A DNA stretch of 64,000 bases, taken from contig FOUN01000001.1 in NCBI GenBank assembly GCA_900114885.1, positions 372,001 to 436,000 of the forward strand, given 5' to 3'. This document shows, piece by piece, positions 27,210 to 49,206 of this stretch. The notes under the pieces were generated by a model. That model was not told where the DNA came from. It saw only the letters and a program-made list of their open reading frames with translations, and searched no databases. How positions within the stretch are numbered: position 1 is the stretch's first letter; the number at the start of each line of letters is the position of its first letter. Made by a program: the position numbers and the translations under genes. This DNA comes from Psychrobacillus psychrodurans. Lineage in GTDB: Bacteria; Bacillota; Bacilli; Bacillales_A; Planococcaceae.

Positions 27210-29600
27210 ATGAAGAAAAAAGCTATCAAAATTGCAGCTTCAACTGCAGTAGCAGCTTCAGCATTCGTTGCAGCAGCACCAGCACAACAAGCTGACGCAG
27301 CAACTAATGTAAACCAATTAACAACAAACGCACAAAATGCAGGTACAGTATTAAAATGGGCTATCTCAGTAGAAGGTTCTGCTAACTACGTTACACGTCC
27401 ATACAATGAATACAACGCTGCTAAAAAAGCAATCGCAGCAGCAGAAGCAGCAGCTAAAAAAGCTACTGCATCTGAACAACTAAGCATTGCAGCTAAACTT
27501 GTTGAACCAAAATTACAAGTTAAACGTGCAGCAGCTTACATCGATGCAATCACTTCAAGTGAAAAAATTAAAGAATTAACTGCTGCTTTAGATGCAGCTA
27601 TTAAAACTGACGATATCGAAAAAGTAGAAACTGCTTATCACAAAGCAACTGCTGAATACCGTAAACAAGCAGCACTACTTGACCGTGTATATGGTCAATC
27701 TACTCGTGACGGAATCCGTAACGCAGTAAAACCAGCTATCGAAAAATTAGTAGCTTCAGTTAAAAACGAAGTAACTGTAAACATGCTAGCTAAATCAGCA
27801 GCGGCTAACTCTAAAGCTGGTAAATTAGAAGTAGCGGCTCAAAACTTAACAGACGCTCAAGCTATTCTTGACGCTAACGTTCTTAAATGGGAAACTTCTT
27901 TACAAAAATCAGTTAATGATGTAGCAGATGCTTTGCCATTAAAAGTTCTTTCAGTTGCACGTGTTGACAAAAACACAGTTACTGTAAAATTCTCTAAAGC
28001 TCCAGAAGCAGTTCTAGCAGCAAGTCAATTCACATTTGACAATAGTTTACTAGTGCACTCTGCTTCAGTATCTGCTGATAAAAAGACTGTTACTTTAACA
28101 ACATCTGACCAAGCAGCAAGCAAAACATATGCACTGTCTTACCAAGGTGTAGCTACAGGTTTATCATTTACTACTCCTGCAACTGCAGCTGATAACAGCT
28201 TCTTCATTGATCAAGCAGACAATGCATACTTAGATTTAGGTCAAACAAGAACATACACTGTTACAGTTAAACAAACTGATGGTCAACCATACAATGGTCC
28301 AGCAGTAATTGACTTGGAAAACATCGCAGGTACGGCAGCTACAAATGCTGAAATCGCTACTGTTGATGGAAAAAATAACAATGGTGTTGCATGGGGTCCT
28401 AAATGGACTGGTGACGTAAAAGACGGTAAAGTTACATTTGTAGTTAAATCTACAGAAGCTAACTTAAATCTTCCAACACCATTATCTACTTATGCTAAAC
28501 CAGTTGTAACTATTGATGCTAACGACAACCAAACTGCAGATGCTACTGAAAGATTTGTTGAGGGTGGAGGTTCTTACTTCTTCGCAGAAGCACAAAATGG
28601 TCAAACAGTACTTGATTTCAACACAAATACATTGATTGCTGTTAAAGACAAAGACTACTTTGTAGCTTGGACTGGTGCTAAGACAGAAGTTGGTATTAAC
28701 ACAGCTCTTAAATATAAGTACGATTCAAATGATATCTTTGGAAACGGAAGCTTTGATGCATTTGAAAATGCATTATCTGCTGGAGATATTGTAAACGTAA
28801 ACTACAACCGTACTGTTGCAAACAGCTCTTCATTCACAATAACAAGTGACGTAACTGAAACTGCTGTTTCTATTACTAATCCTTCACGTGAAGTTTCTTA
28901 TGAAGGAGCTACTTTCCGCTTTGAAGGTAAAGGGACTGCAGGTTACAAACTTGGGTTATACCGTGATATCGATGGCAACGGTGCTTTAGATGCAACAGAA
29001 TTAGCTAACCACCAAGTTGGTCAAACAGTTTCTGTTTCTTCTAATGGAACTTGGGTTGTTCAAGCAAATAACCTTGTAAACAATGCAGCTAACGACTATA
29101 TCGCTATTCAGTTCCCTTCTAGTTCTTCGGCAGTAGCAGCAACTACTAATGGAACATTAGCAAACACTGAGTTATTAAGTACTAATATTTCTGCAACTGC
29201 AACTCCAGTAGGTGATAAACAGTCTGTACATCGTCAAATCTTCTCACCTGCATCTATTACATTCAATGATGCTGATACAAGTGGTGGATTATCAAGTGAC
29301 GATACTTTAGACTTCACATTCGACAGTGCGTCTGCATATGCGCATGAGTTTAAAGGTTTCACAACTGGAACAATTACACTTGAACAAAACTTCAAGTATG
29401 TTACTTTGAACGTTGAATTCGTTGATGTTAACACTGTTAAAGTTAAAAATATCGTAGGAACAGTTCCTACTGGATTCAGCACTGATGTAGCTGATATCAA
29501 AGCTAAAGCTACTAAGTTGTCTGGAGCTACTGGTTTAATCAACCAAGACAAACTTCAACTTAAAGTTAGCCCAACAGCAGCTCAAAATATTCTTCAATAA
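27210..29600 (+). CDS. Probable major S-layer protein, SbsC-type anchor
   Basis: A 796-residue secreted protein. Residues 1-31 are a signal peptide (cleavage after ADA). Residues about 32-235 form an all-helical domain matching the SbsC N-terminal wall-polymer-binding region of Geobacillus; LLDRVYGQSTRDGIRN aligns with SbsC LDRVYGKTTRDLLR. Then come Ig-like beta domains, e.g. VLSVARVDKNTVTVKFSKAP at about 245-325. No SLH motif. The coding sequence uses a restricted codon set (GCA/GCT, CGT, GGT) typical of very highly expressed genes, unlike its two paralogues downstream. With a strong promoter, AAGGGAG ribosome site and strong terminator it is the best candidate for the main lattice protein. 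Confidence 0.82.
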   Translation: MKKKAIKIAASTAVAASAFVAAAPAQQADAATNVNQLTTNAQNAGTVLKWAISVEGSANYVTRPYNEYNAAKKAIAAAEAAAKKATASEQLSIAAKLVEPKLQVKRAAAYIDAITSSEKIKELTAALDAAIKTDDIEKVETAYHKATAEYRKQAALLDRVYGQSTRDGIRNAVKPAIEKLVASVKNEVTVNMLAKSAAANSKAGKLEVAAQNLTDAQAILDANVLKWETSLQKSVNDVADALPLKVLSVARVDKNTVTVKFSKAPEAVLAASQFTFDNSLLVHSASVSADKKTVTLTTSDQAASKTYALSYQGVATGLSFTTPATAADNSFFIDQADNAYLDLGQTRTYTVTVKQTDGQPYNGPAVIDLENIAGTAATNAEIATVDGKNNNGVAWGPKWTGDVKDGKVTFVVKSTEANLNLPTPLSTYAKPVVTIDANDNQTADATERFVEGGGSYFFAEAQNGQTVLDFNTNTLIAVKDKDYFVAWTGAKTEVGINTALKYKYDSNDIFGNGSFDAFENALSAGDIVNVNYNRTVANSSSFTITSDVTETAVSITNPSREVSYEGATFRFEGKGTAGYKLGLYRDIDGNGALDATELANHQVGQTVSVSSNGTWVVQANNLVNNAANDYIAIQFPSSSSAVAATTNGTLANTELLSTNISATATPVGDKQSVHRQIFSPASITFNDADTSGGLSSDDTLDFTFDSASAYAHEFKGFTTGTITLEQNFKYVTLNVEFVDVNTVKVKNIVGTVPTGFSTDVADIKAKATKLSGATGLINQDKLQLKVSPTAAQNILQ

Positions 29601-29609
29601 TAATGTTTT

Positions 29610-29644
29610 AAAAAGGAGGATGTCCATAAGGACTCCTCCTTTTT
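29610..29644 (+). terminator. Terminator of the S-layer gene
   Basis: AAAAAGGAGGA (29610-29620) pairs with TCCTCCTTTTT (29634-29644), with an inner GTCC/GGAC helix. Confidence 0.9.
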
Positions 29645-29728
29645 AAATTTAGGTGCCAGGTACCTAAACAAGGCAAGAAAACAGTTCTGAAAACATGGTT
29701 TTAGAAAACTAGGCTGTGAGGATGAGGA

Positions 29729-29771
29729 AAGTCTCTTGATCGAGAAATCGATTGAGAGACTTTTTTTTATT
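29729..29771 (+). terminator. Second hairpin with T run
   Basis: AAGTCTCT and AGAGACTT arms with an inner GATCGA/TCGAT helix, followed by eight T residues. No gene lies between it and the previous terminator, so it may serve a lost gene or act as a fail-safe. Confidence 0.7.
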
Positions 29772-30099
29772 GGGTTGATAAGTTTGGTTTCGGCATCCAT
29801 TTAGTTTTACTATAATGTTTGAGCATATACGGCTGAAATTATATTTGAAAAGTAGCCTTCAAGTTATTCCTTAAAGGTGTAATTATGTTGCATTGTTTTT
29901 TCCTAGCTATGATCCATATAATACTTTGTATAGACAGGTGCAGTTTTTTCTATACACGGTGGCAATATGATCGAAGAAGCTTTAACTGAAGAAACGAATA
30001 GTTACTCTTAAGATTGTTAAAGTAGCATGGAAAAGTGGGTAGGGACAGTGTTCTAGCGAAGCTACCATAGAGTTTTAGTATCGACTGGATTGGTATGAA

Positions 30100-30345
30100 T
30101 ATAGGAACTAACATAGAAAAGACCACTAGAGTTTAGAACTTCTTTTGGATAGTAACGATATTCGTAGATTTGAGCAGTGTAGTTGTACTTTTGCATGTAA
30201 TCGCTATACCGCTTTTTTATCCGATTCATTAATTTCCACTATTGGGATTATTCTTGAACGGAGCAATAAATGAACATGATTGCTCATAATGCAGTATGCA
30301 TATAGTTCAAATCGCAAAGTTTGTTGTAGAACTTATTCTACCTAT
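30100..30345 (-). pseudogene. IS200/RAYT-like Y1 transposase remnant
   Basis: On the minus strand one frame reads QTLRFELYAYCIMSNHVHLL, the hallmark HUH region of Y1 (REP-associated/IS200-like) transposases, usually written YCIMPNHVHLL. After a frame change it continues NRIKKRYSDYMQKYNY, corresponding to the MKRI..RY...YN.KY helix that bears the catalytic Tyr. The usual GHLFQ.RFKS box is not recognisable and the N-terminus is missing. It is a decayed copy and cannot be active. Confidence 0.78.
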
Positions 30346-30419
30346 TAGTTATAATTATAATAATAAAAGTTTTCTATATTTTGGTAATCAAATACAAAAA
30401 GAAAAAGGGGAGTAATTTA

Positions 30420-32657
30420 ATGAGAAACAAAACATTGAAAGTAGGTATTTCTGCTGCAGTAATAACATCAGCATTTGTAGTTGGGACACCAAATTATAAA
30501 GTGGAGGCAGCAACGAATATAGAACAATTAATGACGAACGTTCAAAATTCAAGCACTGTTTTAAAATGGGCGATTTCAGTAGAAGGTTCTGCTGATGGAG
30601 TAACTCAGCCATGGATCCAATATAATGCAACAAAAATTGCTATTGCTAATGCAGAGAAGTCTATAAAACAATTAAGTTTTTCTGATCAATTAAAGTATGA
30701 AGCTCGACTGGCAGATGCTAAAACCCAATTAAAACGCGCGCAAGGATATTTAGATGCAATAACAGCAAGTACAAAAATTAATGAAAAAACAAATGCCCTT
30801 TCTGCAGCCGTTTCAGCAAATAATCTTAATTTAGTGGAAAAATCCTATCATGAAATGACTGCTGAGTTTCGAAAGCAAACAATTTTATTGGACCGTGTAT
30901 ATGGACAATCTACACGTGATAAGATTCGAAATGCAGTGAAGGGTCCTGCAGAAAAGTTAATTAATGAATTGAAGAATGATGTAACAGTTCATATGTTAAC
31001 AAAGGGAGCAAGTGAAGATATTAGAACTTCTAAACAAGCAGAAGCTTCTAGAAAAATACATGAAGCTCAAGCAATATTAAATGCCAATGTTTTATACTGG
31101 GAAAGTACTTTGCAAAAAAGCTTAACAGCGGTAACGAATTCTATACCTGTACAAATAGCTTCGATTTCAAGAGTAGATAATACAACGGTGTCTGTCAGAT
31201 TAAATAGAGCAGTGTCCAATATTCAAACTTCTGAGTTTACCTTTGATAACAGTTTATCTGTTACAAGTGCTTCTCTAAGTCCAGATGGGATGAATGTCAC
31301 GTTAAAAACATCAGTACAAACTCCTTCTTTTAAATATACTTTAAAGTACAAAGGAAGTAGTGCTAGCTTTACAGTTCCTGGAAGCATAGTGCCTATTCAA
31401 GTAGGAAATACCACAACACAGTACAGAGAAACCTCTGAAATTCTTGCATTATCTGCAACCTTTGCTGGTACTTATGGAAATAATAACATTCGAGTTGATA
31501 TTCCTGCTGGTATCAAAGTATTAACGATAAATGGGATCGATAATTCAATTGCAGGTGCAAAGAGTGTGAATGTTATCCCAGATAGAAATGGCACTGTAAC
31601 CATAACATTTACATCAAATAATTTAAACGCGGCAGCTATGGATAAAGTATTTACTTTTAATAAAATGGAGAATAATAAAGTAGTAGAAACGCAAACCTCT
31701 GGGTATATGAACTTTTACGTCCCTGCAAAAGATGGATCAATTTCAAGTAAAAAGGTTCAATATGTAGATTTAGCTAACAATTACTTTGTAACTGTAGATG
31801 GCATAAAATATCAAATTAAAGGATCTAACGATACATTCCGAAATGAAAGTGTTGCTATTTCTTATGAGTCATTTAAAGCAGCATTAAATATAGATGATAC
31901 AATTAATGGTACGTACAAAACAACCTCATCTTCATCATTTAACATAGTAACCAATCACTACTCTGTACCGCTATTAGTAGATTCAAAATTTGCTTATAAA
32001 TCTGGATATGGTTACAGAATGATTGGTAAACAAATAGAACTAAAAGGTACTGGTCAACCAAATTATGAGTTGTTCTTATTCAAAAATTCAGGTTCTTTTC
32101 TGGGGAAAATAAAAATTAATTCGTCTGGAGCATGGAGTTTTAATACGAATCTTGAACAGAATGCTATAAATGATTTCTATATGGTACAACAAGTAGCGGG
32201 TAAATCGGCACCTCTTTATACTAGTGGTAATATCTTAAGAGTAATAGAAGGTCCTTTTGATCTTTTATCTACTAGTGAGGGTACTACTCGTGATGAAGAT
32301 ATATCTGATGAAGAGATAACTTTTACAATTGCACCAGTTAAGCGAACAAATGGCGCATTAGTAGTTCAAGATAAAGCAGTAATCACAAAACAAGCATCTA
32401 TTATTGTTAGTGATGAGGATGGAACTAAAATTCAGTTTACAAATAATGAGAACGGGACTCTTTTTAGTTCCGTGACAAATGGCTTTAAAATAAAGTTTGG
32501 TCCTACCAAAGAAGGCACTATTTCTGGTGTTACTCTAGATAAGGGTGCAGATGAAAAACTAACAGGAACCCTAGACATAATTTCTATTGATGGAGTGTCA
32601 AATGGTTACGATCTTCAATTAAAAGTTAATCCAGGACATCAGATTAAAGTATATTAG
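30420..32657 (+). CDS. S-layer-like protein, SbsC-type anchor (paralogue 2)
   Basis: A 745-residue secreted protein. ATG at 30420 is preceded by AAAAAGGGGAG, and the signal peptide ends at VEA-ATN. The helical anchor (about 30-235) is closely related to that of the 27210 gene, including VLKWAISVEGSA and LLDRVYGQSTRDKIRN. Ig-like domains follow (IASISRVDNTTVSVRLNRAV), and the C-terminal half is divergent. Codon use is ordinary, so expression is probably lower or conditional. Likely an alternative or minor surface-layer protein. Confidence 0.78.
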   Translation: MRNKTLKVGISAAVITSAFVVGTPNYKVEAATNIEQLMTNVQNSSTVLKWAISVEGSADGVTQPWIQYNATKIAIANAEKSIKQLSFSDQLKYEARLADAKTQLKRAQGYLDAITASTKINEKTNALSAAVSANNLNLVEKSYHEMTAEFRKQTILLDRVYGQSTRDKIRNAVKGPAEKLINELKNDVTVHMLTKGASEDIRTSKQAEASRKIHEAQAILNANVLYWESTLQKSLTAVTNSIPVQIASISRVDNTTVSVRLNRAVSNIQTSEFTFDNSLSVTSASLSPDGMNVTLKTSVQTPSFKYTLKYKGSSASFTVPGSIVPIQVGNTTTQYRETSEILALSATFAGTYGNNNIRVDIPAGIKVLTINGIDNSIAGAKSVNVIPDRNGTVTITFTSNNLNAAAMDKVFTFNKMENNKVVETQTSGYMNFYVPAKDGSISSKKVQYVDLANNYFVTVDGIKYQIKGSNDTFRNESVAISYESFKAALNIDDTINGTYKTTSSSSFNIVTNHYSVPLLVDSKFAYKSGYGYRMIGKQIELKGTGQPNYELFLFKNSGSFLGKIKINSSGAWSFNTNLEQNAINDFYMVQQVAGKSAPLYTSGNILRVIEGPFDLLSTSEGTTRDEDISDEEITFTIAPVKRTNGALVVQDKAVITKQASIIVSDEDGTKIQFTNNENGTLFSSVTNGFKIKFGPTKEGTISGVTLDKGADEKLTGTLDIISIDGVSNGYDLQLKVNPGHQIKVY

Positions 32658-32665
32658 TTTTATAT

Positions 32666-32713
32666 AATGAACAAAGCCGTATAAGGTATAATCCTTTAAC
32701 GGCTTTGTTCATT
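32666..32713 (+). terminator. Terminator after paralogue 2
   Basis: Perfect outer arms AATGAACAAAGCCGT and ACGGCTTTGTTCATT (32666-32680, 32699-32713) with an inner AGG/CCT pair. Confidence 0.82.
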
Positions 32714-32807
32714 ATTAATTTTTGTTAATAAAAATATAATAAATTTATTATTCGGATTTCCTCCTCGTATTAGAAATAAAATTAGTTGAGACAATGTTCT
32801 AGTCCAT

Positions 32808-32842
32808 AAAGCCGTTAAAGAAGTGAATTCTTTAACGGCTTT
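32808..32842 (-). terminator. Terminator of the SLAP-domain gene
   Basis: Perfect 15-base arms (32808-32822 with 32828-32842), core AAAGCCGTTAAAGAA. It faces the minus-strand gene and shares sequence with the terminator at 32666. Confidence 0.8.
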
Positions 32843-32850
32843 ATGTATTA

Positions 32851-33672
32851 TTATAAAGTTTGTGGAACCAATTCTATTCTCCAAGAACTGAAATCTGGAT
32901 TCTCTTTCATGAATACATCTTTGGAGAAAGATAAGCTAATGGGACGTGCTTGCTTAGAAGCAATTTCGAATTGTCCGATTGGAAATCCGAGTTTACACAC
33001 CATATCATCGGCAGCATCAAATAGTTGGATAGGCAGATTTTCAATGGTTAATGTATTAGAAAATGCATTACGAATGATGATATAAATATTGACTGCGTCA
33101 TCTGACTCGTGGAAATGGAATCCAACAATTGAGATTTCGTTCTCTTTAATAGGTTCTAATGTAGATACTAGATTGTGGACATATCCTTGTTGATCTTCAT
33201 TAAGTCCATTCTTCCAATAATCATCTAAGTGTAATTCGAAGTCTTTTACAACTTTCTCGTAATACTCAAATGCCATTTCAAAATCCATTTCGTTTACTAT
33301 TTCATCATAAGGTACTAGTATATCTTCCATTTCAAATAGGAAATTCCACGGTCTTGCTGTACATGCTTCTAACTCTCCAAACAACTCCATGTCAAATTGT
33401 TTCTTTGCTAGTTCTTTCCCTTCCTTATCTTTCACAACTAAAACCACTTGTTCCAGGCGTAATTTTTTAGGTAAAGAATGTCTAATTATAGCTGTTACGA
33501 CAATTCCCGAATCCACTGTATATAATTTTACTCCATGAATATGTAGTTGATTTGCTTCTAAATTTTCTAATTGTTGATGGAAGTATTGGAAAATATACTT
33601 CTCAGCTGCGGGTATTTCCCAGTCTGTAGAAAAATCGATTTCAGTTTTATATGTTTTAGGAGAATTTGTCAT
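32851..33672 (-). CDS. SLAP-domain protein, probable S-layer assembly factor (SlaP-like)
   Basis: A 273-residue protein without signal peptide. It contains two similar domains of about 100 residues (about 15-115 and 160-270). Each has the pattern of a SLAP domain: I.G....ES(or VDSG).V....IR..L...L..E...L.L.D..G......F..G and a C-terminal PW.F or SW.IEL motif, e.g. ACTARPWNFLFEMEDILVP. In the Bacillus cereus group SlaP works with SecA2 to export S-layer proteins. Its position between three S-layer-type genes on the opposite strand supports that role. No secA2 is in the window. A cytosolic export or assembly factor is the best guess. Confidence 0.72.
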   Translation of the reverse strand: MTNSPKTYKTEIDFSTDWEIPAAEKYIFQYFHQQLENLEANQLHIHGVKLYTVDSGIVVTAIIRHSLPKKLRLEQVVLVVKDKEGKELAKKQFDMELFGELEACTARPWNFLFEMEDILVPYDEIVNEMDFEMAFEYYEKVVKDFELHLDDYWKNGLNEDQQGYVHNLVSTLEPIKENEISIVGFHFHESDDAVNIYIIIRNAFSNTLTIENLPIQLFDAADDMVCKLGFPIGQFEIASKQARPISLSFSKDVFMKENPDFSSWRIELVPQTL

Positions 33673-33857
33673 ATTTTTTAGTCCCTTTCTGCTATACGTG
33701 ATTAACTATAAGTATAACACAATGTTGCTAGCTGATAGAAAGACTACAATCTTACTATCGTTTCCAATATTAAGAAATAAGTTTGATTAAACTTATATGA
33801 TACAATCATATAGATTATTCAGATGTATAAACAATCTTAGCATGGAGGCAAATTAGT

Positions 33858-36110
33858 ATGAGGAAAAAGTCTTTGAAACTTGTAATAGCAATAACTACTA
33901 TTCTTTCTATTATTGCCGCCCCACAAGTAAGTGCATCAACAAACATAAAACAATTAATAATAGATGCACAAAATGCAGGAACTATATTAAAATGGGCAAT
34001 TTCTAAAGAGGGATCAGCTGATTTTAGAACTCGCCCATATGAGCAATATAATACGACAAAAGAAACTATTGCAGCTGCTGAAAAAGTTGCTACCAAGTTA
34101 TCTAAATCTGAACAACTCAATGCTAAAGCTAAATTAGTAGAGCCAAAAATTCATGTGAAACGTTCACAAGCATACATAGATGCTATAACCTCTAGTGAAA
34201 AAATTACGAAGTTAACAAGTAATTTGCAAGATGCGATAGATTCAGCAAATCTTAATAGTGTAGAAGCTGCATACCATATAGCAACAGCTGAATATAGAAA
34301 ACAAGTAAAACTATTAGACAGAGTATATGGGCAATCAACTAGAGATGGTATACGTAATCAAGTCAAACCGGACATGGAGAAACTAATTCAAGATGTCAAA
34401 AATGATGTGACGGTAAAAATGTATCTCGACCAAGCGAGTGAATTTATTAAAGACAATAAATGGTTAGAAGCTTCCTTAGAATTAGACAAAGCCAACTCTT
34501 ACATAGCTAACAAAAGTACGGATTTTACTTTTAAAACATTCCTAACGAAAGCCTATGATGAAACTTTAAAATCTTTACCTTTACAACCTTTGTTCATAAC
34601 ATCTGATGGCAAAAATAACGTAACAGTTAATTTCTCTAAAGCCTACCATATACCATTAGAAGGTTTAGTGGCAGGTCAATTTAAAGTCTCAGGAGAAACT
34701 GTTCAATCAGCTCAATTATCCAAGGACAAAAAATCTGTAATATTAAATACATCTGACTTAGACGCTAATACAAGTTACACGGTAAGTTGGAAAGAAAACC
34801 AATTGAACTTTATGACAGAGGCTGTTCCTGATACAACAGGTATTGCATTAACTGATAAGGAAACTACATATCTCGAAACAACTAATTCGAAAGTGTATAC
34901 AGCTAAGCTAACTAATTTAGACGGTAGTGCTTATACAGGGAGAGTTAAAGTTAGCTTGGGAGAAGTAAATGACATGACAGCAACTAACTCTACCTCAGCA
35001 GTAATTACTTCTATAAACGCTCAAAGCGTAGAAAGTGGTCAAGAGACGATTGGCTACGCAGGTCAAGATGGAAATCTAGTAATTATAATAGCTGCTGCGT
35101 ATGGATTTAATGCCGAAACTCCATCAGCCACATATGTCCAACCAGTAATAGAAAAAATAGATGGTATTAAAAGTACCAAAAAAGCAGGAATTACACATTT
35201 TTATCAGCTTCAAAATGTTGAAGGTCCTTATATGTTGACTATTGATAGTAAAGTGATCACTACTGAAGATGATTACATTTTTACTGGTGACCATAAATAT
35301 AAATGGGATGCTAATGATCTATTCTTTATCTATGGAGTACAAGTTTCACAAGAAGTTTTCGGAAATGCTCTATCTAAAGGGGATAGAGTAGAAGTTAGTT
35401 ATGAAACACGGATAGATAACCATTCTACTTGGAACATTAATGTAGATGTTACTGAGGATGATGATGTGGTATTCCAAAATCCAGTTACTTCACCTTTAAC
35501 ATTTGATGGGTACTCCTACGATATAAGCGGTACAGCACAACCTGGCAATCGAGTAAAAGTTTATAGAAATGACATACTAGTAGGAACTACTATTGTTGAT
35601 ACAAAAGGATACTGGACCATTGGATCTGTGAGCTTGTTACAAGAAGTAGCTAATACATTTGTTGCTTATCAATACACTCCCGGCAAAGATGGTATAAACG
35701 GGGAAGGGGCTGTGAACGAAAACAACCCTGCTACAACAATAATTAACGAAGGGGTATTTGCTTCAATCCAAATAGATTTAAATGATAAGGGTTCAAATGG
35801 TTTATCTATTTCGGACACATTAGAATTTACATTCCATAATCCTTCTTATGATCATGAATTTAAAAAAGGGATATCCGGTACTATTACATTTAATGATGGT
35901 TTTGGAAAAAGTGCTGTAGTGAAGATTAAGTATATAGATGAAGATACTCTTCAAATCGTTGAATTCGTTTCTACAGACGCTGGGTTCAATCACAAAACTT
36001 CATTATTCGTGATTACCAAGACTAATGGAATTGTGAACCAAGACCATATGACATTTAGTATTTTGGGAAATGGAGTTACTTCCTTTGTGGAAAATAATTC
36101 AATAAACTAA
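33858..36110 (+). CDS. S-layer-like protein, SbsC-type anchor (paralogue 3)
   Basis: A 750-residue secreted protein: signal peptide 1-24 (cleavage near VSA-STN), SbsC-type helical anchor at about 25-230 (ILKWAISKEGSADF, LLDRVYGQSTRDGIRNQV), then Ig-like domains and a C-terminal region that resembles that of the 27210 protein (DHEFKKGISGTITFND compared with AHEFKGFTTGTITLEQ). It is divergent from the SLAP-domain gene, sharing an intergenic region of 185 bases. The ribosome site is ATGGAGGC. The three paralogues could be alternative S-layers or components of a mixed lattice. Confidence 0.78.
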   Translation: MRKKSLKLVIAITTILSIIAAPQVSASTNIKQLIIDAQNAGTILKWAISKEGSADFRTRPYEQYNTTKETIAAAEKVATKLSKSEQLNAKAKLVEPKIHVKRSQAYIDAITSSEKITKLTSNLQDAIDSANLNSVEAAYHIATAEYRKQVKLLDRVYGQSTRDGIRNQVKPDMEKLIQDVKNDVTVKMYLDQASEFIKDNKWLEASLELDKANSYIANKSTDFTFKTFLTKAYDETLKSLPLQPLFITSDGKNNVTVNFSKAYHIPLEGLVAGQFKVSGETVQSAQLSKDKKSVILNTSDLDANTSYTVSWKENQLNFMTEAVPDTTGIALTDKETTYLETTNSKVYTAKLTNLDGSAYTGRVKVSLGEVNDMTATNSTSAVITSINAQSVESGQETIGYAGQDGNLVIIIAAAYGFNAETPSATYVQPVIEKIDGIKSTKKAGITHFYQLQNVEGPYMLTIDSKVITTEDDYIFTGDHKYKWDANDLFFIYGVQVSQEVFGNALSKGDRVEVSYETRIDNHSTWNINVDVTEDDDVVFQNPVTSPLTFDGYSYDISGTAQPGNRVKVYRNDILVGTTIVDTKGYWTIGSVSLLQEVANTFVAYQYTPGKDGINGEGAVNENNPATTIINEGVFASIQIDLNDKGSNGLSISDTLEFTFHNPSYDHEFKKGISGTITFNDGFGKSAVVKIKYIDEDTLQIVEFVSTDAGFNHKTSLFVITKTNGIVNQDHMTFSILGNGVTSFVENNSIN

Positions 36111-36112
36111 TT

Positions 36113-36150
36113 AAAATTCCCTTCTAACTTAGGCTAGAAGGGAATTTTAT
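36113..36150 (+). terminator. Terminator after paralogue 3
   Basis: Perfect 14-base arms (36113-36126 with 36135-36148), core ATTCCCTTCTA. It is followed only ten bases later by a member of the palindromic repeat family. Confidence 0.85.
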
Positions 36151-36158
36151 GTTCATGT

Positions 36159-36207
36159 TCCCTGTGTAAGATACAATTCTGAATTGTATCTTACACAGGG
36201 ACTTTTT
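36159..36207 (+). repeat. Palindromic repeat, copy 1 (terminator-like)
   Basis: Perfect 21-base arms (36159-36179 and 36181-36201) starting TCCCTGTGTAAGATACAATT, single-base loop, then TTTTTG. First of five copies in the window. Confidence 0.9.
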
Positions 36208-36225
36208 GTGAACACATGTTATTTA

Positions 36226-36334
36226 TCCCTGTGTAGCACACAATTAAAACACCTTCGATTGGAGGCACATGCTAATCATGTTCGTTTATCGAAGGTGTTT
36301 TGAATGCTTATGGTCCCTGTGTAATAAACAAATT
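36226..36334 (+). repeat. Two half-copies of the palindromic repeat around a hairpin
   Basis: TCCCTGTGTAGCACACAATT starts at 36226 and TCCCTGTGTAATAAACAAAT at 36314. Between them a perfect 14-base stem (36246-36259 with 36288-36301, core AACACCTTCGAT) ends in TTTTG. The same half-site, hairpin, repeat order occurs at 44884-45005 and 56437-56561. Confidence 0.75.
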
Positions 36335-37396: not shown

Positions 37397-40090
37397 ATGA
37401 GAAAGAATAGAGTACAGAAGACCGTAGTAGCTTCAGTTCTTGCAATGTCGTTATTAACTTCTACTAGTGTCGGTTTGGCTAATAATTCTTTGCAAGACTT
37501 AGTTGATCAGGCAAGGAAAGATATGAAGGAAGCATCTTATGCTTATGTAGTACCATCTCAAAATGGAAAACTTGCTACAAGTGTAGAATTGTATCCAACA
37601 TTGAATTTGGCAAAATTAAACTATCAAAAAGCAAGAAGTGCTCTTTTAAAATCAAATGTTAAAAATAAGGGGACTTTACTCAAAGAACTAGATGATTTAT
37701 ATAATGAACGTATTACAAAAGGAATAGTGCCATATATTGATGCCTATAATTATGCGGACAAGTATTTAACACCTATTTTGGAAGATATCAAGAAAGCTGA
37801 GGTAGAAAGAGATTGGGTTAAAATTGAAAAGTTGTATCACCAATTATCTGTCCAATTAAAAAGTAGAACTGCCATTTTATATCGTTTTACAGGTAAAGCT
37901 GCTAGGGATTTATTGTTAAAGCAATACAAGGATCCTGCTAACTTAAAGCGTGATCAATTAATGGTTGCGGTAACTGTTTATATGAAAGTAAGGGAAGCAG
38001 ACAGACTAATAGCAGAAGGAAAAATAGAAGATGCAAGAAGAGTACTAGAATCTATTAAACAGTTACTTTATAGATTGCCGACTACGAATAATTTGCCGAT
38101 GATCAAAGAACTTTTAGTGCAAATAGAAACAGTAAGTAAAAAAGCGGGAGTTATCATAATTACCACGCCAACTATTCCTCCAACAACAGGTGGTGGAAAT
38201 AACGGAGGTGGAAACGGTGGTGGAGGAAATAATGGAGGAGGAAACTCAGGGGCAAACTTCAACTTATCCATTATGCATACAAATGACACACATGCTCAAT
38301 TAGATAATGTGGCCAAACGTGTTACAGCTGTAAAGGAATATAGGAAAGCAAATCCAAATGCATTATTAGTGGATGCTGGAGATGTCTTCTCAGGAACATT
38401 GTATTTCAATGAATTCAAGGGACAAGCAGATGTTGAATTCATCAATATGATGAAATATGATCTGATGACTTTTGGTAATCATGAGTTCGATTTGGGCTCG
38501 AGTGCTGAAGGACATAAAGCACTAGCAGAATTTGTGAAGAAAGCTAATTTTCCATTTGTAGGTGCGAATACTGATTTTTCACAGGACGAGCATTTAAAAG
38601 GATTATTTAATGTAAAAATACAAAATAACCCGAAAAATAGTCAAATTTATAGCGGTATTATTAAAGTGGTAAATGGACAGAAAATAGGATTGTTTGGATT
38701 AACGACTGCTGAAACAAAGGATATTTCAAGCCCAGGCAAAGTGAGTTTTACAGATTATGTGAAAGCTGCTCAACAAATGGTTAACGAGTTCGAAAAGCAA
38801 GGAGTGAACAAAGTAATTGCTGTGACGCATCTTGGCTATGATGATAATCCGCAATATGACAATGACTTACAGTTAGCAGCTAAAGTATCTGGCATTGACG
38901 TAATTGTTGGAGGTCATAGTCATACCAAATTAGATAAACCAGTTGTGGTAGATAAGGATTTAGTAGGAAAAGCGAAAGATCCGACTGTTATTGTTCAAGC
39001 TTATCAATATAGTGAGTTTTTAGGAACATTAGACGTTGAGTTCGACAAAAGCGGAAAAGTAATAAAACACGCTGGTCAATTAATTAGCGTTAACAACCAA
39101 GCTGAGGATGGTAAGGCAAAAGAGCTGTTAGAAAAATATTCATCTAAAATTAGTGCATTAAAAAATGAACTGACTGGAGCAATCGCAGTAAATGCTTTAG
39201 ATAATCCACGTTCTAGTACTGGTGGTTCAAGTGTTCGAAGCAACGAAACTGCCCTTGGGAATCTCATTGCGGATGGCATGCTGAAAAAAGCAAGAGAATA
39301 CAACAAAGATGTGATTATGGCTTTCCAAAATGGCGGTGGTATTCGAGCAGCTATAAATCAAGGACCTATTACAGTTGGTGAAGTGATCACCGTCCTGCCT
39401 TTTGGGAATACATTAGCAACGATGAAACTTACAGGTGCAGAGATAAAAGCAACATTTGAAGTCAGCTTGAAAGAATTTCCGAAAGAAAACGGAGGATTCC
39501 TACATGTGTCCGGTGCTAAAGTCAGCTATGACTCCACTAAGCCAATTGGACAACGTGTTGCTTCCATCCAGTTTAAAAACGCTGATGGAACTTACACGGA
39601 AGTAAAAGAGGATGCAACATACACCATTGCAACGAACGCTTTTACTGCTAAAGGTGGAGACGGCTACGATGTATTGAAAAAAGCGTACGAAAACGGTATA
39701 GTAACCGATTTAGGTTTATCTGATTGGGAAAATTTCCGTGAGCACTTAGTAAGTATTAGACAAGTTGACCCACAAGTTGAAGGACGGATTGTAGATGTGA
39801 AGGATGAAACTCCAGACAATGAATATCCAGGTGGAGATGTGGATCCGAAGAACTTTTCAGGAACAGTAGAAGCCCCAAAAATCTATAACGGCGATGTGAG
39901 GGTTTCGGTTACAGATGTCAGCTTCCTTGGAAATGCCATTATTAAAGGAAATTTAACGATAAAAGGTATTCCTTCTACTAATTTAGCACTTACAAATATT
40001 ACAGTTAAAGGCAACCTTGAACTTTCCGAGGCAAACGGAAAAAGTGTGGACATAGATGGGATCATTGTTGATGGAGAAACTACTCTTTAA
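37397..40090 (+). CDS. S-layer-anchored 5'-nucleotidase (bifunctional UshA/YfkN type)
   Basis: An 897-residue secreted protein. Signal peptide 1-28. Residues about 30-250 form an SbsC-type helical anchor (IDAYNYADKY, LYRFTGKAARDLLLKQY). A Gly/Asn-rich linker (about 262-288) leads to a calcineurin-like metallophosphatase: HTNDTH with Asp297/His299, DAGDVFSG, GNHEFD with Asn361/His362 and GGHSHTKL. Then the 5'-nucleotidase C-terminal domain (about 600-770) with FQNGGGIRAAI and VLPFGNTLATM. A short beta-rich tail (820-897) ends the protein. It should hydrolyse nucleotides outside the cell. The next gene (dual nuclease) begins 21 bases later, so they are co-transcribed. Confidence 0.9.
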   Translation: MRKNRVQKTVVASVLAMSLLTSTSVGLANNSLQDLVDQARKDMKEASYAYVVPSQNGKLATSVELYPTLNLAKLNYQKARSALLKSNVKNKGTLLKELDDLYNERITKGIVPYIDAYNYADKYLTPILEDIKKAEVERDWVKIEKLYHQLSVQLKSRTAILYRFTGKAARDLLLKQYKDPANLKRDQLMVAVTVYMKVREADRLIAEGKIEDARRVLESIKQLLYRLPTTNNLPMIKELLVQIETVSKKAGVIIITTPTIPPTTGGGNNGGGNGGGGNNGGGNSGANFNLSIMHTNDTHAQLDNVAKRVTAVKEYRKANPNALLVDAGDVFSGTLYFNEFKGQADVEFINMMKYDLMTFGNHEFDLGSSAEGHKALAEFVKKANFPFVGANTDFSQDEHLKGLFNVKIQNNPKNSQIYSGIIKVVNGQKIGLFGLTTAETKDISSPGKVSFTDYVKAAQQMVNEFEKQGVNKVIAVTHLGYDDNPQYDNDLQLAAKVSGIDVIVGGHSHTKLDKPVVVDKDLVGKAKDPTVIVQAYQYSEFLGTLDVEFDKSGKVIKHAGQLISVNNQAEDGKAKELLEKYSSKISALKNELTGAIAVNALDNPRSSTGGSSVRSNETALGNLIADGMLKKAREYNKDVIMAFQNGGGIRAAINQGPITVGEVITVLPFGNTLATMKLTGAEIKATFEVSLKEFPKENGGFLHVSGAKVSYDSTKPIGQRVASIQFKNADGTYTEVKEDATYTIATNAFTAKGGDGYDVLKKAYENGIVTDLGLSDWENFREHLVSIRQVDPQVEGRIVDVKDETPDNEYPGGDVDPKNFSGTVEAPKIYNGDVRVSVTDVSFLGNAIIKGNLTIKGIPSTNLALTNITVKGNLELSEANGKSVDIDGIIVDGETTL

Positions 40091-44827: not shown

Positions 44828-44883
44828 TCAAGTACATGATGGTGAAATTTTACAAATATTTTGAGAGTAGCCTATTAGCTTGC

Positions 44884-45005
44884 TCCCTGTGTAACAAACA
44901 ATTTCAACCGAGCAGTTAGAAGACATTTCTATTTAATTTCTGAGGATTTAACCTCTTTGGTCCCTGTGTAAGATACAATTCTGAATTGTATCTTACACAG
45001 GGACC
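44884..45005 (+). repeat. Palindromic repeat, copy 2, with a half-copy 77 bases upstream
   Basis: The half-site TCCCTGTGTAACAAACAATT starts at 44884. The full copy has perfect 23-base arms (44959-44981 and 44983-45005, GGTCCCTGTGTA...) followed by TTTTTG. The remaining 170 bases to the next gene are AT-rich with no other feature I can support. Confidence 0.88.
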
Positions 45006-45174
45006 TTTTTGTAAATGCATGTAAAATAGTATTTACAATTTATTTACAGTTATGCGATTGAAGTTAATAATTATTAGACCTATATTTAAGTGGCGACTTT
45101 GTTATTCTATTATTTTTAAAATGGAGAGCTATAGATAGAGATAGTATTGTTCAACTAATTTTAGGAGGGAAATT

Positions 45175-48100
45175 ATGCAAAACCATGCGTTGAAAAAATC
45201 GATAATGTCAGCTGTTCTTGCAACAACTTTATTAACTTCGACAAATGTTAGCTACGCAAGTAGTTCGCTACAAGATATAGTAGATCAAGCAAGAAAAGAT
45301 ATGAAAGAGGCTGCATATTCTTATGTAGTACCCTCTCAAAATGGAAAACTTGTCCCTAGTGCGGATTTGTATCCAACCTTGAATAAGGTTAAAAAAGACT
45401 ATCAAATAGCAAAAGATGCAATCTCAAAATCTAATGCTAAAAACAAAAGTACTCTATTAAATGATTTAAATGATTTATATAACGAAAGAATAACGAAAGG
45501 ATTAATCCCTTATATAGATGCTTATAATTATGCGGATAAATATTTAAATCCGATAATGGCAGATATTCAAAAAGCAGAACAGACAAAAGACTGGGAACAA
45601 GTTGAAAAACTGTATCATAAATTATCTTTCCAACTAAAAACCCGTTCTGAAATTATGTATCGTTTTACCGGAAAAGCTACACGGGATCTATTATTAGACC
45701 AATATAAACAAACTGCTGACATGAAGCGTAGTCAGTTAATGGTACCTGTAACTATTTATATGAAAGTGAAACAAGTTGATAAATTACTAGCTGAAGGAAA
45801 ACAAGCAGAGGCTAAAAAGGTATTAGAATCTATCAAACCTTTACAGTTAAGATTACCATCAACTAGTACTTTACCAATGGTGAAAGAGTTACTAGAAGAA
45901 ATAAATACAGTATCTAAAAAAGCTGGTATGGACATTACTCCAACCCCAACCCCAACAACGCCAACTAATCCATCCCCAGGTGGAGGGAACACTGGTGGAG
46001 GAAATAACGGTGGTAATAATGGCGGAGGTGCAGATAAAAAATTCAAACTTACTTTATTGCATACAAATGATACGCATGCAAAGGTAGAGACTGCACCTAA
46101 ACGTATTACAGCTATTAAAAAAGAAAGAGCAGAAAACCCCAATGCCGTATTAGTAGATGCAGGAGATGTATTCTCAGGAACTCTATATTTCAATCAATAT
46201 AAAGGTCTTGCCGATTTAGCATTTATGAATCTCGCAGAATATGATGTAATGACTTTTGGTAATCATGAATTTGATCTTGGTTCTTCAGAAGAAGGCCATA
46301 AAGCATTAGCTGACTTTATAAAAGGTGCTCAATTCCCATTTGTTAGTGCAAATGTAGATTTTTCGAAAGATGAAAATTTACGAGGTCTGTTCAGTGACAT
46401 AGCATCAAGCGCACCTGAAAATGGAAAAATCTATAATGGTATTGTTAAAGAAGTAAATGGCGAAAAGGTAGGGTTCTTTGGACTAACGACACAAGAAACG
46501 AAAGGTCTCTCTAGCCCAGGACAAGTGACGTTTACAGATTATATTATAGAAGCTGAAAAAGCAGTAAAAGCATTTGAAGATATGGGAGTGAACAAAATTG
46601 TTGCAGTTACCCATATTGGATACGATGACAACCCAGCAATTGATAATGACTTAGCATTAGCTGCTCAAGTAGACGGCATTGACGTTATTATCGGTGGTCA
46701 CAGTCATACAAAACTAGCAGCTCCAGTAGTTGTGGATAAAAATGAAACTGGTGCAACAAAGGACAAAACGATTATCGTACAGGCATCTTCCCAAGGAGAC
46801 TTATTAGGTACACTTGATGTGGAATTTGATAATAATGGAAAAGTTGTTACTCAAAATGGAGAACTAATTGAGGTTAGTAAATTCACAGAAGATGCAGAAG
46901 CAAAAAAATTACTAGAATCATATAAACCAAAAGTAGATGAGGTTGCTGGTGAAGAAATTGGTGTTAGTGCAGAGGTCATATTAGAAAATCCTCGAACGAA
47001 TGGAGACAATACTAAACCAAGTGTACGTAAAAACGAAACAATACTAGGTAATCTAATTGCTGATGGCATGTTGGTAAAAGCTAAGTCACTTAATCCAAAA
47101 GTAATAATGGCATTCCAAAATGGTGGAGGAATTCGCGCTAGTATGGATGCAGGTCCAATTACAGTAGGTGAAGTAATTACAGTTCTTCCTTTCGGTAATA
47201 CACTATCTACAATGGAGATTACAGGAGCGGAATTAAAAGAAGCATTTGAAACGAGTGTAGGTGTATACCCACTTGAAAACGGTGGTTTCCTGCATGTAGC
47301 AGGAGCAAAAGTAGAATTCGATTCTACTAAACTTAAAGGCGAACGTGTCGTTTCTATCTCTTATGAAAATGCAGATGGTGCTTATAAAAAAATAGTAGAC
47401 ACAGAAACATACACAGTGGCAACGAATTACTTTACAGCTCAAGGCGGAGATAGCTATGATGTCTTCAAAGAAATTTATGAAGCAGGAAAAGTAAAGGATC
47501 TAGGTCTTTCAGATTGGGAAAACTTTGCCGACCATTTAAAAACTTTATCAACGATTCCAACAAAAATTGAAGGTCGTATCGTTGATGTTGCAGTACAAGT
47601 TGTAAATCCGGAACCAGAAATCGTTGAAGATCCTGGAACAACACCAGCTCCAGTAGCAACAACTGAGCCACCGCTTTATAACTCCAATCCAGAGGAATTT
47701 ACAGTTTCTCAAATTGCGCGCTATGACAGCGGTCAAGGTGAAACAGGAACTGAAATTTTAGCATACGATGTTGCGACCAACAAAGGATTTGTTACAAATG
47801 GAGCAGTTGGTGGATATGATATCCTTAATTTTGCAGATGTAAAGTCTGGGACATTTAAGCAACTTGATTCTACAAAGCGTGTAGTTGTTGAAGATTATGG
47901 AATCCCAGGAGTTAAGAATATAACAAGTATTGCGTCTCATCCTACAGAAGATTTAATCGCAATTGCTGCTTATGCTGAAAAAACAGACCCGGGTTATATC
48001 ATATTTGCTACAAAAGACGGGAAATATGTGAAGCATGTGGAAGTTGGAGCATTGCCGGATATGGTGACATTTACTCCAAATGGTAAAAAAGCAATTGTTG

Positions 48101-49206
48101 CAAACGAAGGTGAACCAAACAAGGATACAACTATCGATCCAAAAGGTTCTATTTCGGTTATTGATGTAGCAACATTAACTGAAACAACACTTAACTTTAC
48201 AGAAGCAATGTTGGATGAAAATGTTCGTACTTCTTATAAAGGGGCTTCAATTTTAGAGCAACTAGAACCAGAATACGTAACTGTCTCTGATGATAGTAAA
48301 ACTGCCTATGTAACTTTACAAGAAAATAATGCAATTGCGACAGTAGATCTTGAAACGAATACAATTCTTCATGTAAGAGGTCTTGGAGTCATTGACCATT
48401 CTGTAGAAGGATTTGAAATGGATGCAAATAAAGACGATAAAAAAGCGGACATTATCAAACAACCAATTCTAAGTTTCCATATGCCAGACGCTATTGATAC
48501 ATTTACGGTGGCTGGTAAAACATACATCATTACTCCAAACGAAGGTGACTCTCGTGATTATGCTGATGATGGAGGATATAGCGAAGTTTCAGAGTTAGCT
48601 GATCTTGCATTACCAATTGCTTTAACAGAAGCAAATTATAAAGGATTTACACAAGCAGAGTTAGATGCATTTGATCTATCTACTTTAGATGGTTATAAAG
48701 TTACAACGGAAAATGGTTTAAACAAAGCTAGTACAGCATATGAAGCAATCTATGGATATGGTGGTCGTAGTTTCTCCATCTTTGATGCAGTAACGATGGA
48801 GCAGGTATATGACAGCGGAAGTGAATTTGAAAAAATTATTGCTGAGAAAACACCAAAATATTTCAATATTAATAGCGATGACATTAAAGTAGATAATCGT
48901 AGCGATGATAAGGGACCTGAGCCAGAAACAGCTGTAGTAGGTGAAATTGATGGCACAACTTATGGATTTATCGCTTTAGAACGTTACAGCGGTATTATGG
49001 TTTATGATTTAACAGATATAAACGCACCTAAGTTTGTAACACTAATTTCAAGCAGGGACTTCACTGCAAAGGTTGCAGGGGACGTTTCTCCAGAAGGATT
49101 ACAATTTATACCAGCTTCAGAAAGTCCAACTGGCAAAGCACTATTAGCAGCTACACATGAAGTATCAGGAACAATAGCTGTTTATGAATTTGGAGTAGTA
49201 AACTGA
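45175..49206 (+). CDS. S-layer-anchored 5'-nucleotidase fused to a choice-of-anchor-I-type propeller
   Basis: A 1343-residue secreted protein. The first 780 residues parallel the 37397 product: signal peptide 1-27, SbsC-type anchor about 28-250 (LYHKLSFQLKTRSEIMYRFTGKATRDLLLDQY), Pro/Thr and Gly/Asn linker, metallophosphatase (HTNDTH with Asp299/His301, GNHEFD, GGHSHTKL) and 5'-nucleotidase C domain (FQNGGGIRASM, VLPFGNTLSTM). The extra C-terminal part (about 830-1343) looks like the choice-of-anchor I beta-propeller seen in secreted alkaline-phosphatase-like proteins: ISTASHPTEDLIAIAAY-type blades, VANEGEPN, ITPNEGDSRDY, GGRSFSIFD. The ribosome site is AGGAGGG. It likely adds a second phosphatase or esterase activity, unproven. 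Confidence 0.85.
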   Translation: MQNHALKKSIMSAVLATTLLTSTNVSYASSSLQDIVDQARKDMKEAAYSYVVPSQNGKLVPSADLYPTLNKVKKDYQIAKDAISKSNAKNKSTLLNDLNDLYNERITKGLIPYIDAYNYADKYLNPIMADIQKAEQTKDWEQVEKLYHKLSFQLKTRSEIMYRFTGKATRDLLLDQYKQTADMKRSQLMVPVTIYMKVKQVDKLLAEGKQAEAKKVLESIKPLQLRLPSTSTLPMVKELLEEINTVSKKAGMDITPTPTPTTPTNPSPGGGNTGGGNNGGNNGGGADKKFKLTLLHTNDTHAKVETAPKRITAIKKERAENPNAVLVDAGDVFSGTLYFNQYKGLADLAFMNLAEYDVMTFGNHEFDLGSSEEGHKALADFIKGAQFPFVSANVDFSKDENLRGLFSDIASSAPENGKIYNGIVKEVNGEKVGFFGLTTQETKGLSSPGQVTFTDYIIEAEKAVKAFEDMGVNKIVAVTHIGYDDNPAIDNDLALAAQVDGIDVIIGGHSHTKLAAPVVVDKNETGATKDKTIIVQASSQGDLLGTLDVEFDNNGKVVTQNGELIEVSKFTEDAEAKKLLESYKPKVDEVAGEEIGVSAEVILENPRTNGDNTKPSVRKNETILGNLIADGMLVKAKSLNPKVIMAFQNGGGIRASMDAGPITVGEVITVLPFGNTLSTMEITGAELKEAFETSVGVYPLENGGFLHVAGAKVEFDSTKLKGERVVSISYENADGAYKKIVDTETYTVATNYFTAQGGDSYDVFKEIYEAGKVKDLGLSDWENFADHLKTLSTIPTKIEGRIVDVAVQVVNPEPEIVEDPGTTPAPVATTEPPLYNSNPEEFTVSQIARYDSGQGETGTEILAYDVATNKGFVTNGAVGGYDILNFADVKSGTFKQLDSTKRVVVEDYGIPGVKNITSIASHPTEDLIAIAAYAEKTDPGYIIFATKDGKYVKHVEVGALPDMVTFTPNGKKAIVANEGEPNKDTTIDPKGSISVIDVATLTETTLNFTEAMLDENVRTSYKGASILEQLEPEYVTVSDDSKTAYVTLQENNAIATVDLETNTILHVRGLGVIDHSVEGFEMDANKDDKKADIIKQPILSFHMPDAIDTFTVAGKTYIITPNEGDSRDYADDGGYSEVSELADLALPIALTEANYKGFTQAELDAFDLSTLDGYKVTTENGLNKASTAYEAIYGYGGRSFSIFDAVTMEQVYDSGSEFEKIIAEKTPKYFNINSDDIKVDNRSDDKGPEPETAVVGEIDGTTYGFIALERYSGIMVYDLTDINAPKFVTLISSRDFTAKVAGDVSPEGLQFIPASESPTGKALLAATHEVSGTIAVYEFGVVN

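What the first reader, a model, noticed from the sequence alone, without database searches (positions are those of the whole stretch)
27210..49206. Candidate S-layer-scaffolded system for extracellular nucleic-acid and phosphate scavenging
Two large 5'-nucleotidases carry the same kind of N-terminal SbsC-type wall-binding domain as the three adjacent S-layer-like proteins, and a secreted dual-nuclease protein lies 21 bases behind the first nucleotidase. A nuclease would release nucleotides, the tethered nucleotidases would remove phosphate, and products would be held at the surface. Fusion of this S-layer anchor to nucleotidases is, as far as I know, not a described system. Domains are seen; the joint role is inferred from co-location.
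Basis: partly seen in the sequence, partly recalled or inferred. Interest (0 to 1): 0.75.

Follow-up and report, generated by a model that had tools for sequence, protein, structure and literature searches.

The report
Wall-anchored nucleotidases with swappable anchors
A Psychrobacillus bacterium carries enzymes that look made to strip phosphate from nucleic acids and to sit on its wall by an S-layer-type anchor, and close relatives carry some of the same enzymes on an unrelated anchor, so the anchor behaves like an exchangeable plug.

Summary
Two 5'-nucleotidases (37397, 45175) carry an N-terminal SbsC-type wall-binding domain; NT1's matches a solved S-layer anchor at 4e-24. A secreted two-nuclease protein lies 21 bases behind the first. 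The genus is Psychrobacillus.

Scavenging gains support: in other genera nuclease and nucleotidase are one polypeptide; a genome of another family has its own SbsC-nucleotidase followed by the nuclease; a Pho-box-like doublet precedes 9 of 30 nucleotidase genes against 1 of 193 other frames (NT2 has it, NT1 does not).

More surprising is anchor exchange. Of 19 Psychrobacillus genomes 14 have SbsC; four have many SLH domains and alone have strong CsaB matches. A phosphodiesterase is 92% identical over 605 residues between an SbsC and an SLH genome, with no similarity found upstream of its catalytic part. NT2 shows the same; NT1 does not, its SLH and SbsC forms being separate clades. On an rpoB tree anchor type changed at least three times.

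Not shown: wall binding, activity, phosphate control, an S-layer, products held at the surface. SLH-nucleotidases and B. subtilis YhcR/YfkN are precedents: a new variant of a known kind.

The parts
27210..29600 (+). SLP1, surface protein with N-terminal SbsC-type domain
   Evidence: PF18058 85 bits; matches 2RA1 at 5.2e-18
30420..32657 (+). SLP2, surface protein with N-terminal SbsC-type domain
   Evidence: PF18058 88 bits
32851..33672 (-). SLAP-type protein, like accessory Sec S-layer assembly proteins
   Evidence: TIGR04399 212 bits (cut-off 250, not reached), TIGR04398 SLAP domain 190 bits (cut-off 28.5)
33858..36110 (+). SLP3, surface protein with N-terminal SbsC-type domain
   Evidence: PF18058 75 bits
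37397..40090 (+). NT1: 5'-nucleotidase with N-terminal SbsC-type domain and C-terminal beta cap
   Evidence: model
37478..38131 (+). NT1 SbsC-type domain (residues 28-245)
   Evidence: 2RA1 4.4e-24; all-helical in the model
38252..39796 (+). NT1 nucleotidase (residues 286-800)
   Evidence: 2Z1A 3.9e-99; PF00149 + PF02872
40112..44827 (+). NUC: nuclease with ExeM/NucH-like and Endonuclease I domains, no wall anchor found
44959..45005 (+). terminator-like palindrome behind NT1-NUC
45032..45048 (+). Pho-box-like doublet, 126 bases before the NT2 start codon
45175..49206 (+). NT2: 5'-nucleotidase with N-terminal SbsC-type domain and C-terminal choice-of-anchor I domain
45256..45909 (+). NT2 SbsC-type domain (residues 28-245)
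   Evidence: PF18058 44 bits
46036..47592 (+). NT2 nucleotidase; nearest of the 30 rows compared is on an SLH anchor (G012b)
   Evidence: (89%)
47746..49188 (+). NT2 choice-of-anchor I domain
   Evidence: PF22494 303 bits

Best explanation
The locus encodes a cell-surface set for taking phosphate (and nucleosides) from extracellular nucleic acids. The secreted two-domain nuclease cuts DNA (perhaps RNA) to oligo- and mononucleotides; NT1 and NT2, held to a wall polymer by their SbsC-type N-domains, remove phosphate close to the membrane transporters. NT2 is probably induced by PhoP when phosphate is short. The wall anchor is an exchangeable module in front of the catalytic part: Psychrobacillus lineages carry enzymes of this kind on either SbsC or SLH domains, in step with the presence or absence of a CsaB-like wall pyruvyltransferase. 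Shown by sequence: domains, order, pairing, Pho-box-like doublets, anchor exchange in NT2 and in the phosphodiesterase. Inferred: enzyme activity, wall binding, PhoP control, physiological role.
For: Anchor homology to solved 2RA1 and an all-helical N-domain in the model. Nucleotidase domain related to solved 5'-nucleotidases, best 2Z1A. ExeM-like and one or two 5NT domains in one polypeptide in 8 loci of other genera (L012-L017, L019, L020), 6 of 8 with LTD, 6 of 8 with an LPXTG-like motif near the end. Of 38 PF02872 matches over 120 bits in 19 genomes, 20 have an ExeM match on the same strand within 8 kb downstream, in 14 of 19 genomes. G338, another family: SbsC + 5NT gene, nuclease about 100 bases on, and the only Pho-box doublet in 40 kb, before the nucleotidase. 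Doublet before 9 of 30 NT genes against 1 of 193 other frames; 10 of 14 doublets in 752 kb stand before NT genes. In the own genome the doublet also precedes a PstS-like binding protein (Pfam PBP_like_2), a GDPD and a Ppx/GppA gene. Anchor exchange. Precedent: YhcR (PMC11458576, passages).
Against: NT1-NUC, the unit that holds the nuclease, has no strict doublet upstream; 21 of 30 NT genes have none. Genome-wide the doublet is not enriched (22 against 19 for the reversed control). No anchor was found on NUC. G001, G008 and G016b nucleotidases have no anchor, so tethering is not essential. Five of 19 genomes (G002, G006, G009, G011, G017) have no nuclease match within 8 kb behind a strong PF02872 match. 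The SbsC genomes also hold 2-7 SLH matches each, so the anchors are not strictly exclusive. NT1-type catalytic domains do not mix anchors: SLH forms (G012a, G014a, G015a, G016a) are one starred clade, SbsC and unanchored forms another. In B. subtilis a yfkN mutant showed no significant change in DNA degradation.
Confidence: 0.8

Rival explanations
1. The enzymes serve nucleoside and carbon or nitrogen salvage, or removal of extracellular DNA from the cell layer (matrix turnover), and phosphate is a by-product.
For: The same enzymes release nucleosides (general knowledge); the doublet is missing before NT1-NUC and before 21 of 30 NT genes; a large subtilase lies next door.
Against: Doublets stand before NT genes in several genera and, in this genome, before PstS-like, GDPD and Ppx genes.
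Confidence: 0.25
2. The SbsC/SLH difference reflects transfer or differential loss of whole genes or surface loci (paralogues of each anchor type), not exchange of the anchor inside a gene.
For: SLH type is scattered on the rpoB tree. NT1-type catalytic domains follow the anchor: the SLH forms of G012a, G014a, G015a and G016a are one starred clade although G015 lies elsewhere on the rpoB tree. The third nucleotidase is only 51-54% identical between anchor types.
Against: Similarity stops inside genes: the phosphodiesterase aligns over 1802 bases at 85% from its first catalytic codons and blastn finds nothing upstream; NT2's catalytic domain is 89% like G012b's while the anchors are unrelated; a second starred clade mixes SbsC (G003, G007) and SLH (G014b, G015b).
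Confidence: 0.2
3. The nucleotidases act in defence or signalling at the surface (removal of extracellular ATP/AMP or cyclic dinucleotides), as described for AdsA and Nt5e of cocci (recalled).
For: Same enzyme family; CD73 structures match and NadN and Nt5e models match below their cut-offs.
Against: Pairing with a nuclease and the Pho-box-like doublets point to nutrition. Host association of Psychrobacillus was not looked up.
Confidence: 0.1

Closest known systems
Bacillus subtilis YhcR and YfkN
   Same: Extracellular nucleic-acid and nucleotide hydrolases; YhcR is sortase-anchored, reclaims DNA phosphate together with NucA and NucB, and is raised under phosphate limitation, as is YfkN (PMC11458576, passages)
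   Different: Sorting-signal anchor; here SbsC-type domain, separate genes, and ExeM-like + Endonuclease I nuclease domains (that YhcR's nuclease is of another fold is recalled)
SLH-domain 5'-nucleotidases, e.g. B. pseudofirmus OF4 D3FZK5 and UshA D3FQK4
   Same: S-layer-type non-covalent anchor on a 5'-nucleotidase (Table 1 of PMC5938343, passages)
   Different: SLH binds polymer pyruvylated by CsaB; the SbsC-type domain is unrelated to SLH
SbsC of Geobacillus stearothermophilus (2RA1, 4UIC, 4UJ6; the call names them only 'surface layer protein', that they are SbsC is recalled)
   Same: N-terminal wall-polymer-binding domain, sequence match 4e-24
   Different: SbsC is an S-layer protein, not an enzyme. 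A G. stearothermophilus amylase with an SbsC-like anchor is recalled from memory, not seen in a call
ExeM/NucH extracellular nucleases (NF033681)
   Same: Full-length model match 174 bits
   Different: Below NCBIfam's cut-off of 300 bits; carries a second nuclease, Endonuclease I, at the C-terminus

Membership tests
SbsC-type wall-anchored proteins | PF18058 domain over cut-off at the mature N-terminus | tested here: met
   NT1 34 bits, NT2 44 bits, cut-off 27; 2RA1 4.4e-24 for NT1
SbsC-type wall-anchored proteins | Binding to a non-pyruvylated secondary cell wall polymer | not testable with these tools
   Indirect only: no CsaB match in 13 of 14 SbsC genomes, a 31-bit partial match in the other, G006
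S-layer proteins (SLP1-3) | Self-assembly into a lattice | not testable with these tools
   Only the anchor domain and a SLAP-type neighbour were seen
5'-nucleotidase (PF00149 + PF02872) | Both domains over cut-off | tested here: met
   2Z1A 3.9e-99 for NT1
5'-nucleotidase (PF00149 + PF02872) | Metal-site motifs HTNDTH, DAGD, GNHE, GGHSHT (names recalled) | tested here: met
   read in both translations and in the alignment of NT1 to 2Z1A
ExeM/NucH nuclease | NF033681 over its cut-off of 300 bits | tested here: not met
   174 bits; 0 of 19 genus genomes over the cut-off
Endonuclease/exonuclease/phosphatase fold | Sequence match to a solved domain of that kind | tested here: met
   9SF9 4.3e-91 over about 306 residues; PF03372 25.0 bits (cut-off 24.5), PF19580 41 bits (cut-off 27)
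Endonuclease I | PF04231 over cut-off | tested here: met
   160 bits, cut-off 25
Pho regulon | TTHACA repeats 11 bases apart before the gene (consensus recalled) | tested here: inconclusive
   Present before NT2, absent before NT1-NUC; PhoP binding untested; PhoPR genes not searched for
YhcR-type sortase-anchored nuclease/nucleotidase | C-terminal sorting signal | tested here: not met
   The ends of NT1, NUC and NT2 read show no LPXTG-like motif; the scripted scan covered locus proteins only

The most novel reading that the evidence does not exclude
Psychrobacillus lineages have repeatedly changed their wall-anchoring system as a whole: the wall polymer chemistry (CsaB) and the anchors of surface enzymes switched together between SbsC and SLH, in several enzymes by replacing only the part in front of the catalytic module. 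A genus in mid-swap would let the co-evolution of wall ligand and surface proteome be followed step by step.
Probability: 0.55. Interest if true: 0.8.

Novelty: new variant of a known kind. Interest (0 to 1): 0.62.

Why it matters
It supplies a natural experiment on how a bacterium changes the glue of its surface without losing its surface enzymes: a near-identical enzyme on two unrelated anchors in related species, in step with one wall-modifying gene. It also shows SbsC-type domains, known from S-layer proteins, as enzyme anchors, in this genome on nucleotide hydrolases in 4 of 9 cases, and offers natural anchor/linker pairs for surface display.

Tried and rejected
A loose four-box Pho search gave no clear result (NT2 p about 0.02, G008 0.005, most genes not significant). 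The strict doublet was chosen after seeing that output, so one search is partly post hoc; the later-fetched own-genome sites and G338 are the independent checks. Rows dropped: L007-L011, L018 and L023-L030 (genomes seen again as L061-L078, or phosphodiesterase-type loci), L015 (near copy of L014), frames with under 300 bases upstream, and nuclease frames from the background; the background is mechanical reading frames of 200 residues or more, not curated genes. The 30 NT genes include near relatives (L013/L017, L064/L070, L068/L072), so the Fisher value 4e-8 overstates independence.

In one search the pasted tables left out PF02872 rows under 74 bits and the short secondary NF033681 pieces. 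The order-level search repeated the family set (=). Structure search of NT1 showed only nucleotidases in the 50 rows listed of 855; the anchor rests on sequence and the all-helical model. Names of G genomes are inferred from equal contig lengths (e.g. G016 = Psychrobacillus sp. OK028). The loci are about 3.4 kb, so fusions at far ends could be missed.

Paper searches saw listings only: 20 of 61 shown; 12 of 23; 2 of 2; 12 of 1,250; 12 of 32; 10 of 33; 10 of 42; 8 of 93; 3 of 3. In those, judged by titles, abstract starts and the passages, I saw no SbsC-nucleotidase and no genus-wide SbsC/SLH exchange. Most subscription papers are not held.

I raised rival 2 from 0.12 to 0.2 and lowered the novel case from 0.6 to 0.55.
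Full report
What is there. The window lies in a 4.0 Mb, 99.96% complete genome. Named relatives of NT1 with the anchor are Psychrobacillus: five near-full-length matches at 64-75% and one, split, at 90% in its best segment (OK028, L018); the genus is inferred from that. Six proteins fill the finding: SLP1-3, NT1, NUC and NT2. Pfam puts SbsC_C (PF18058) at the N-terminus of all but NUC. The N-domain of NT1 matches solved 2RA1 at 4.4e-24, and the model of NT1 is all-helical there (residues 2-223 of the stretch modelled), followed by a linker, the nucleotidase and a C-terminal beta cap (mean pLDDT 76). NT1 and NT2 have both nucleotidase domains; NT2 adds a choice-of-anchor I domain, modelled as a beta-propeller. 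NUC has LTD, Fn3-assoc repeats, an ExeM/NucH-like domain and Endonuclease I. The anchor domains are basic (pI 8.8-9.4), the other parts tested acidic (pI 4.3-5.8).

Own genome. Nine frames have PF18058; four of the nine also have PF02872: NT1, NT2, a third 5'-nucleotidase (C9, L079) and a 2',3'-cyclic-nucleotide phosphodiesterase/3'-nucleotidase type protein (C8:480k, L080). Over the 14 SbsC genomes of the genus 33 of 141 PF18058 matches share a frame with PF02872, and each genome has at least one.

Nuclease and nucleotidase belong together. Of 38 PF02872 matches over 120 bits in 19 Psychrobacillus genomes, 20 have an ExeM match on the same strand within 8 kb downstream; they lie in 14 of 19 genomes (the distance is long, 6.1 kb, in G007). 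In eight loci of other genera found (L012-L017, L019, L020) an ExeM-like domain and one or two 5NT domains are one polypeptide; six of the eight have a recognised LTD and six an LPXTG-like motif near the end. In G338, a Bacilli genome of another family, a protein with SbsC_C (136 bits) and 5_nucleotid_C (152 bits) is followed after about 100 bases by an ExeM-like protein (205 bits, cut-off 300). Among 398 Bacilli genomes sampled, 9 had PF18058 over the cut-off, 7 of them not Psychrobacillus; among their loci that I examined a fusion to a nucleotidase showed in one, G338 (short loci).

Phosphate control. A strict doublet TTHACA-N4-6-TTHACA (Bacillus Pho-box consensus, recalled) lies within 300 bases before 9 of 30 nucleotidase genes, all nine with N5, against 1 of 193 other long frames; Markov shuffles of the 30 gave 0.1 on average and 2 at most. 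The window's NT2 has it at 45032-45048, NT1 does not. In 752 kb of fetched sequence 14 doublets occur, 10 before nucleotidase genes and one before an SbsC-propeller gene; the reversed control gives 3. In the whole own genome there are 22 doublets against 19 for the reversed control, so the motif alone is weak; but of eight that stand outside long frames and within 300 bases before a frame, four precede a PstS-like binding protein, a GDPD, a Ppx/GppA and NT2. G338's nucleotidase has the only doublet in 40 kb. The motif was fixed; the own-genome sites and G338 came later.

Anchor types. PF18058 occurs in 14 of 19 Psychrobacillus genomes and not in G004, G012, G014, G015, G016. SLH matches number 59-75 in G012, G014, G015, G016, 2-7 in the SbsC genomes and 1 in G004. 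CsaB (TIGR03609), the wall pyruvyltransferase needed for SLH retention (PMC5938343, passages), scores 165-237 bits in exactly those four (only G016 passes the 213-bit cut-off), with weak partial matches in G004 (51 bits), G012 (39) and G006 (31) and none elsewhere. In the four SLH genomes seven nucleotidases carry three SLH domains (L068, L069, L071, L073-L075; L072) and are followed by a nuclease of the same architecture, its ExeM part 43-95% like the window's. An eighth, G016b, has no anchor. G004's carries a single SLH match.

Cases where the cargo is kept and the anchor differs. The phosphodiesterase is 92% and 91% identical over 605 residues between G000 (SbsC) and G012, G014 (SLH), 86% to G015, 76% to G016; two SbsC relatives are 90% (G018) and 88% (G013). 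Pfam sees two SLH stretches in G012, G014, G015 and one in G016, SbsC_C in G013 and G018. In DNA the alignment with G012 runs 1802 bases at 85% and begins at the first catalytic codons; blastn finds nothing upstream, signal peptide included. NT2's nucleotidase domain is 89% identical to that of G012b, which is on SLH, while its propeller is closer to other proteins: a mosaic. A second starred clade holds SbsC (G003, G007) and SLH (G014b, G015b) nucleotidases.

Cases against. NT1-type catalytic domains follow the anchor: SLH forms of G012a, G014a, G015a and G016a are one starred clade, SbsC and unanchored forms another, so for NT1 whole-gene transfer or paralogy is as good a reading. The third nucleotidase type is only 51-54% identical between anchor types, with C-terminal SLH in G012 and G014, so it may not be the same gene. 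The unanchored nuclease follows species only roughly: the window's groups with G012a and G014a (93% to G012a; starred), near G016 and G001, although rpoB joins G012/G014 to G016/G006/G001 first; L065 and the G004/G014b copies fall in a distant group.

History. On the rpoB tree (one gene) three SLH genomes lie inside a starred clade with SbsC genomes G000, G001, G006, and G015 lies elsewhere; starred branches force at least 3 changes of the SLH label (105 of 500 shuffles were as low, so the label is not clustered). Three nucleotidases without anchor (G001, G008, G016b) keep a signal peptide and about the first helix of an SbsC domain before a Gly-rich linker; in DNA the window's NT1 has 703 bases where G001 and G016b have 10, with 78-86% identity on both sides. 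G016 is an SLH genome, so its copy looks like a relic of an SbsC past, unless it was transferred. Within the family, PF18058 over the cut-off is found in 14 of 261 genomes, all Psychrobacillus. Gain of SbsC in this genus with partial return to SLH is my inference; SLH in the rest of the family was not counted.

What is known. SbsC as a non-SLH anchor and G. stearothermophilus S-layer proteins with either anchor are described (PMC3297441 and PMC8559796, passages). SLH-domain 5'-nucleotidases are in Table 1 of PMC5938343 (passages). YhcR, NucA and NucB reclaim DNA phosphate in B. subtilis biofilms; the authors think YfkN may help, though its mutant degraded DNA normally (PMC11458576, passages). 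PMC10454023 names Psychrobacillus in its genus tables on ushA-like genes (passages). The listings of the searches named in Tried and rejected showed no SbsC-nucleotidase and no genus-wide SbsC/SLH exchange.

Verdict. Confirmed observation; interpretation largely right in function, overstated on scaffold and on products held at the surface. New variant of a known kind, with an anchor exchange that deserves its own study.

Noticed in passing
window 36160-36200, 44962-45002, 49223-49263, 50815-50855, 56520-56560: A terminator-like palindrome (arm CCCTGTGTAAGATACAATT, copies with 0-2 mismatches an arm) stands behind SLP3, NUC, NT2, the 49558 gene and the subtilase; with single arms 14 matches at up to 3 mismatches against 0.03 expected. 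Of 136 loci then held only L061 (G001) and L122 (the window's own DNA) had it exactly. It brackets NT1-NUC and NT2 and could serve recombination.
   Followed up: partly
window 32851-33672 (-): SLAP-type protein, like accessory Sec S-layer assembly proteins, between SLP2 and SLP3, suggesting a dedicated export route for surface proteins.
   Followed up: no
L008:17557-19686, L030:10001-13705: SbsC-type domain on the choice-of-anchor I domain alone, and a permuted order SbsC - choice-of-anchor I - nucleotidase: further shuffling of the same modules.
   Followed up: partly
L076:6128-8321 (G016): Nucleotidase copy without anchor and with a stop in the frame beside an open nuclease frame.
   Followed up: no
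L063:9303-13118 (G004): Nucleotidase - choice-of-anchor I protein with one SLH match in a genome with one SLH match in all, no SbsC and only a weak CsaB match: possibly a decayed anchor.
   Followed up: no
window 56656-59766 and 59747-60850: Hybrid 7TM histidine kinase and response regulator pair downstream of a large subtilase; a similar pair lies beside the SbsC-phosphodiesterase loci L023, L025 and L029.
   Followed up: no
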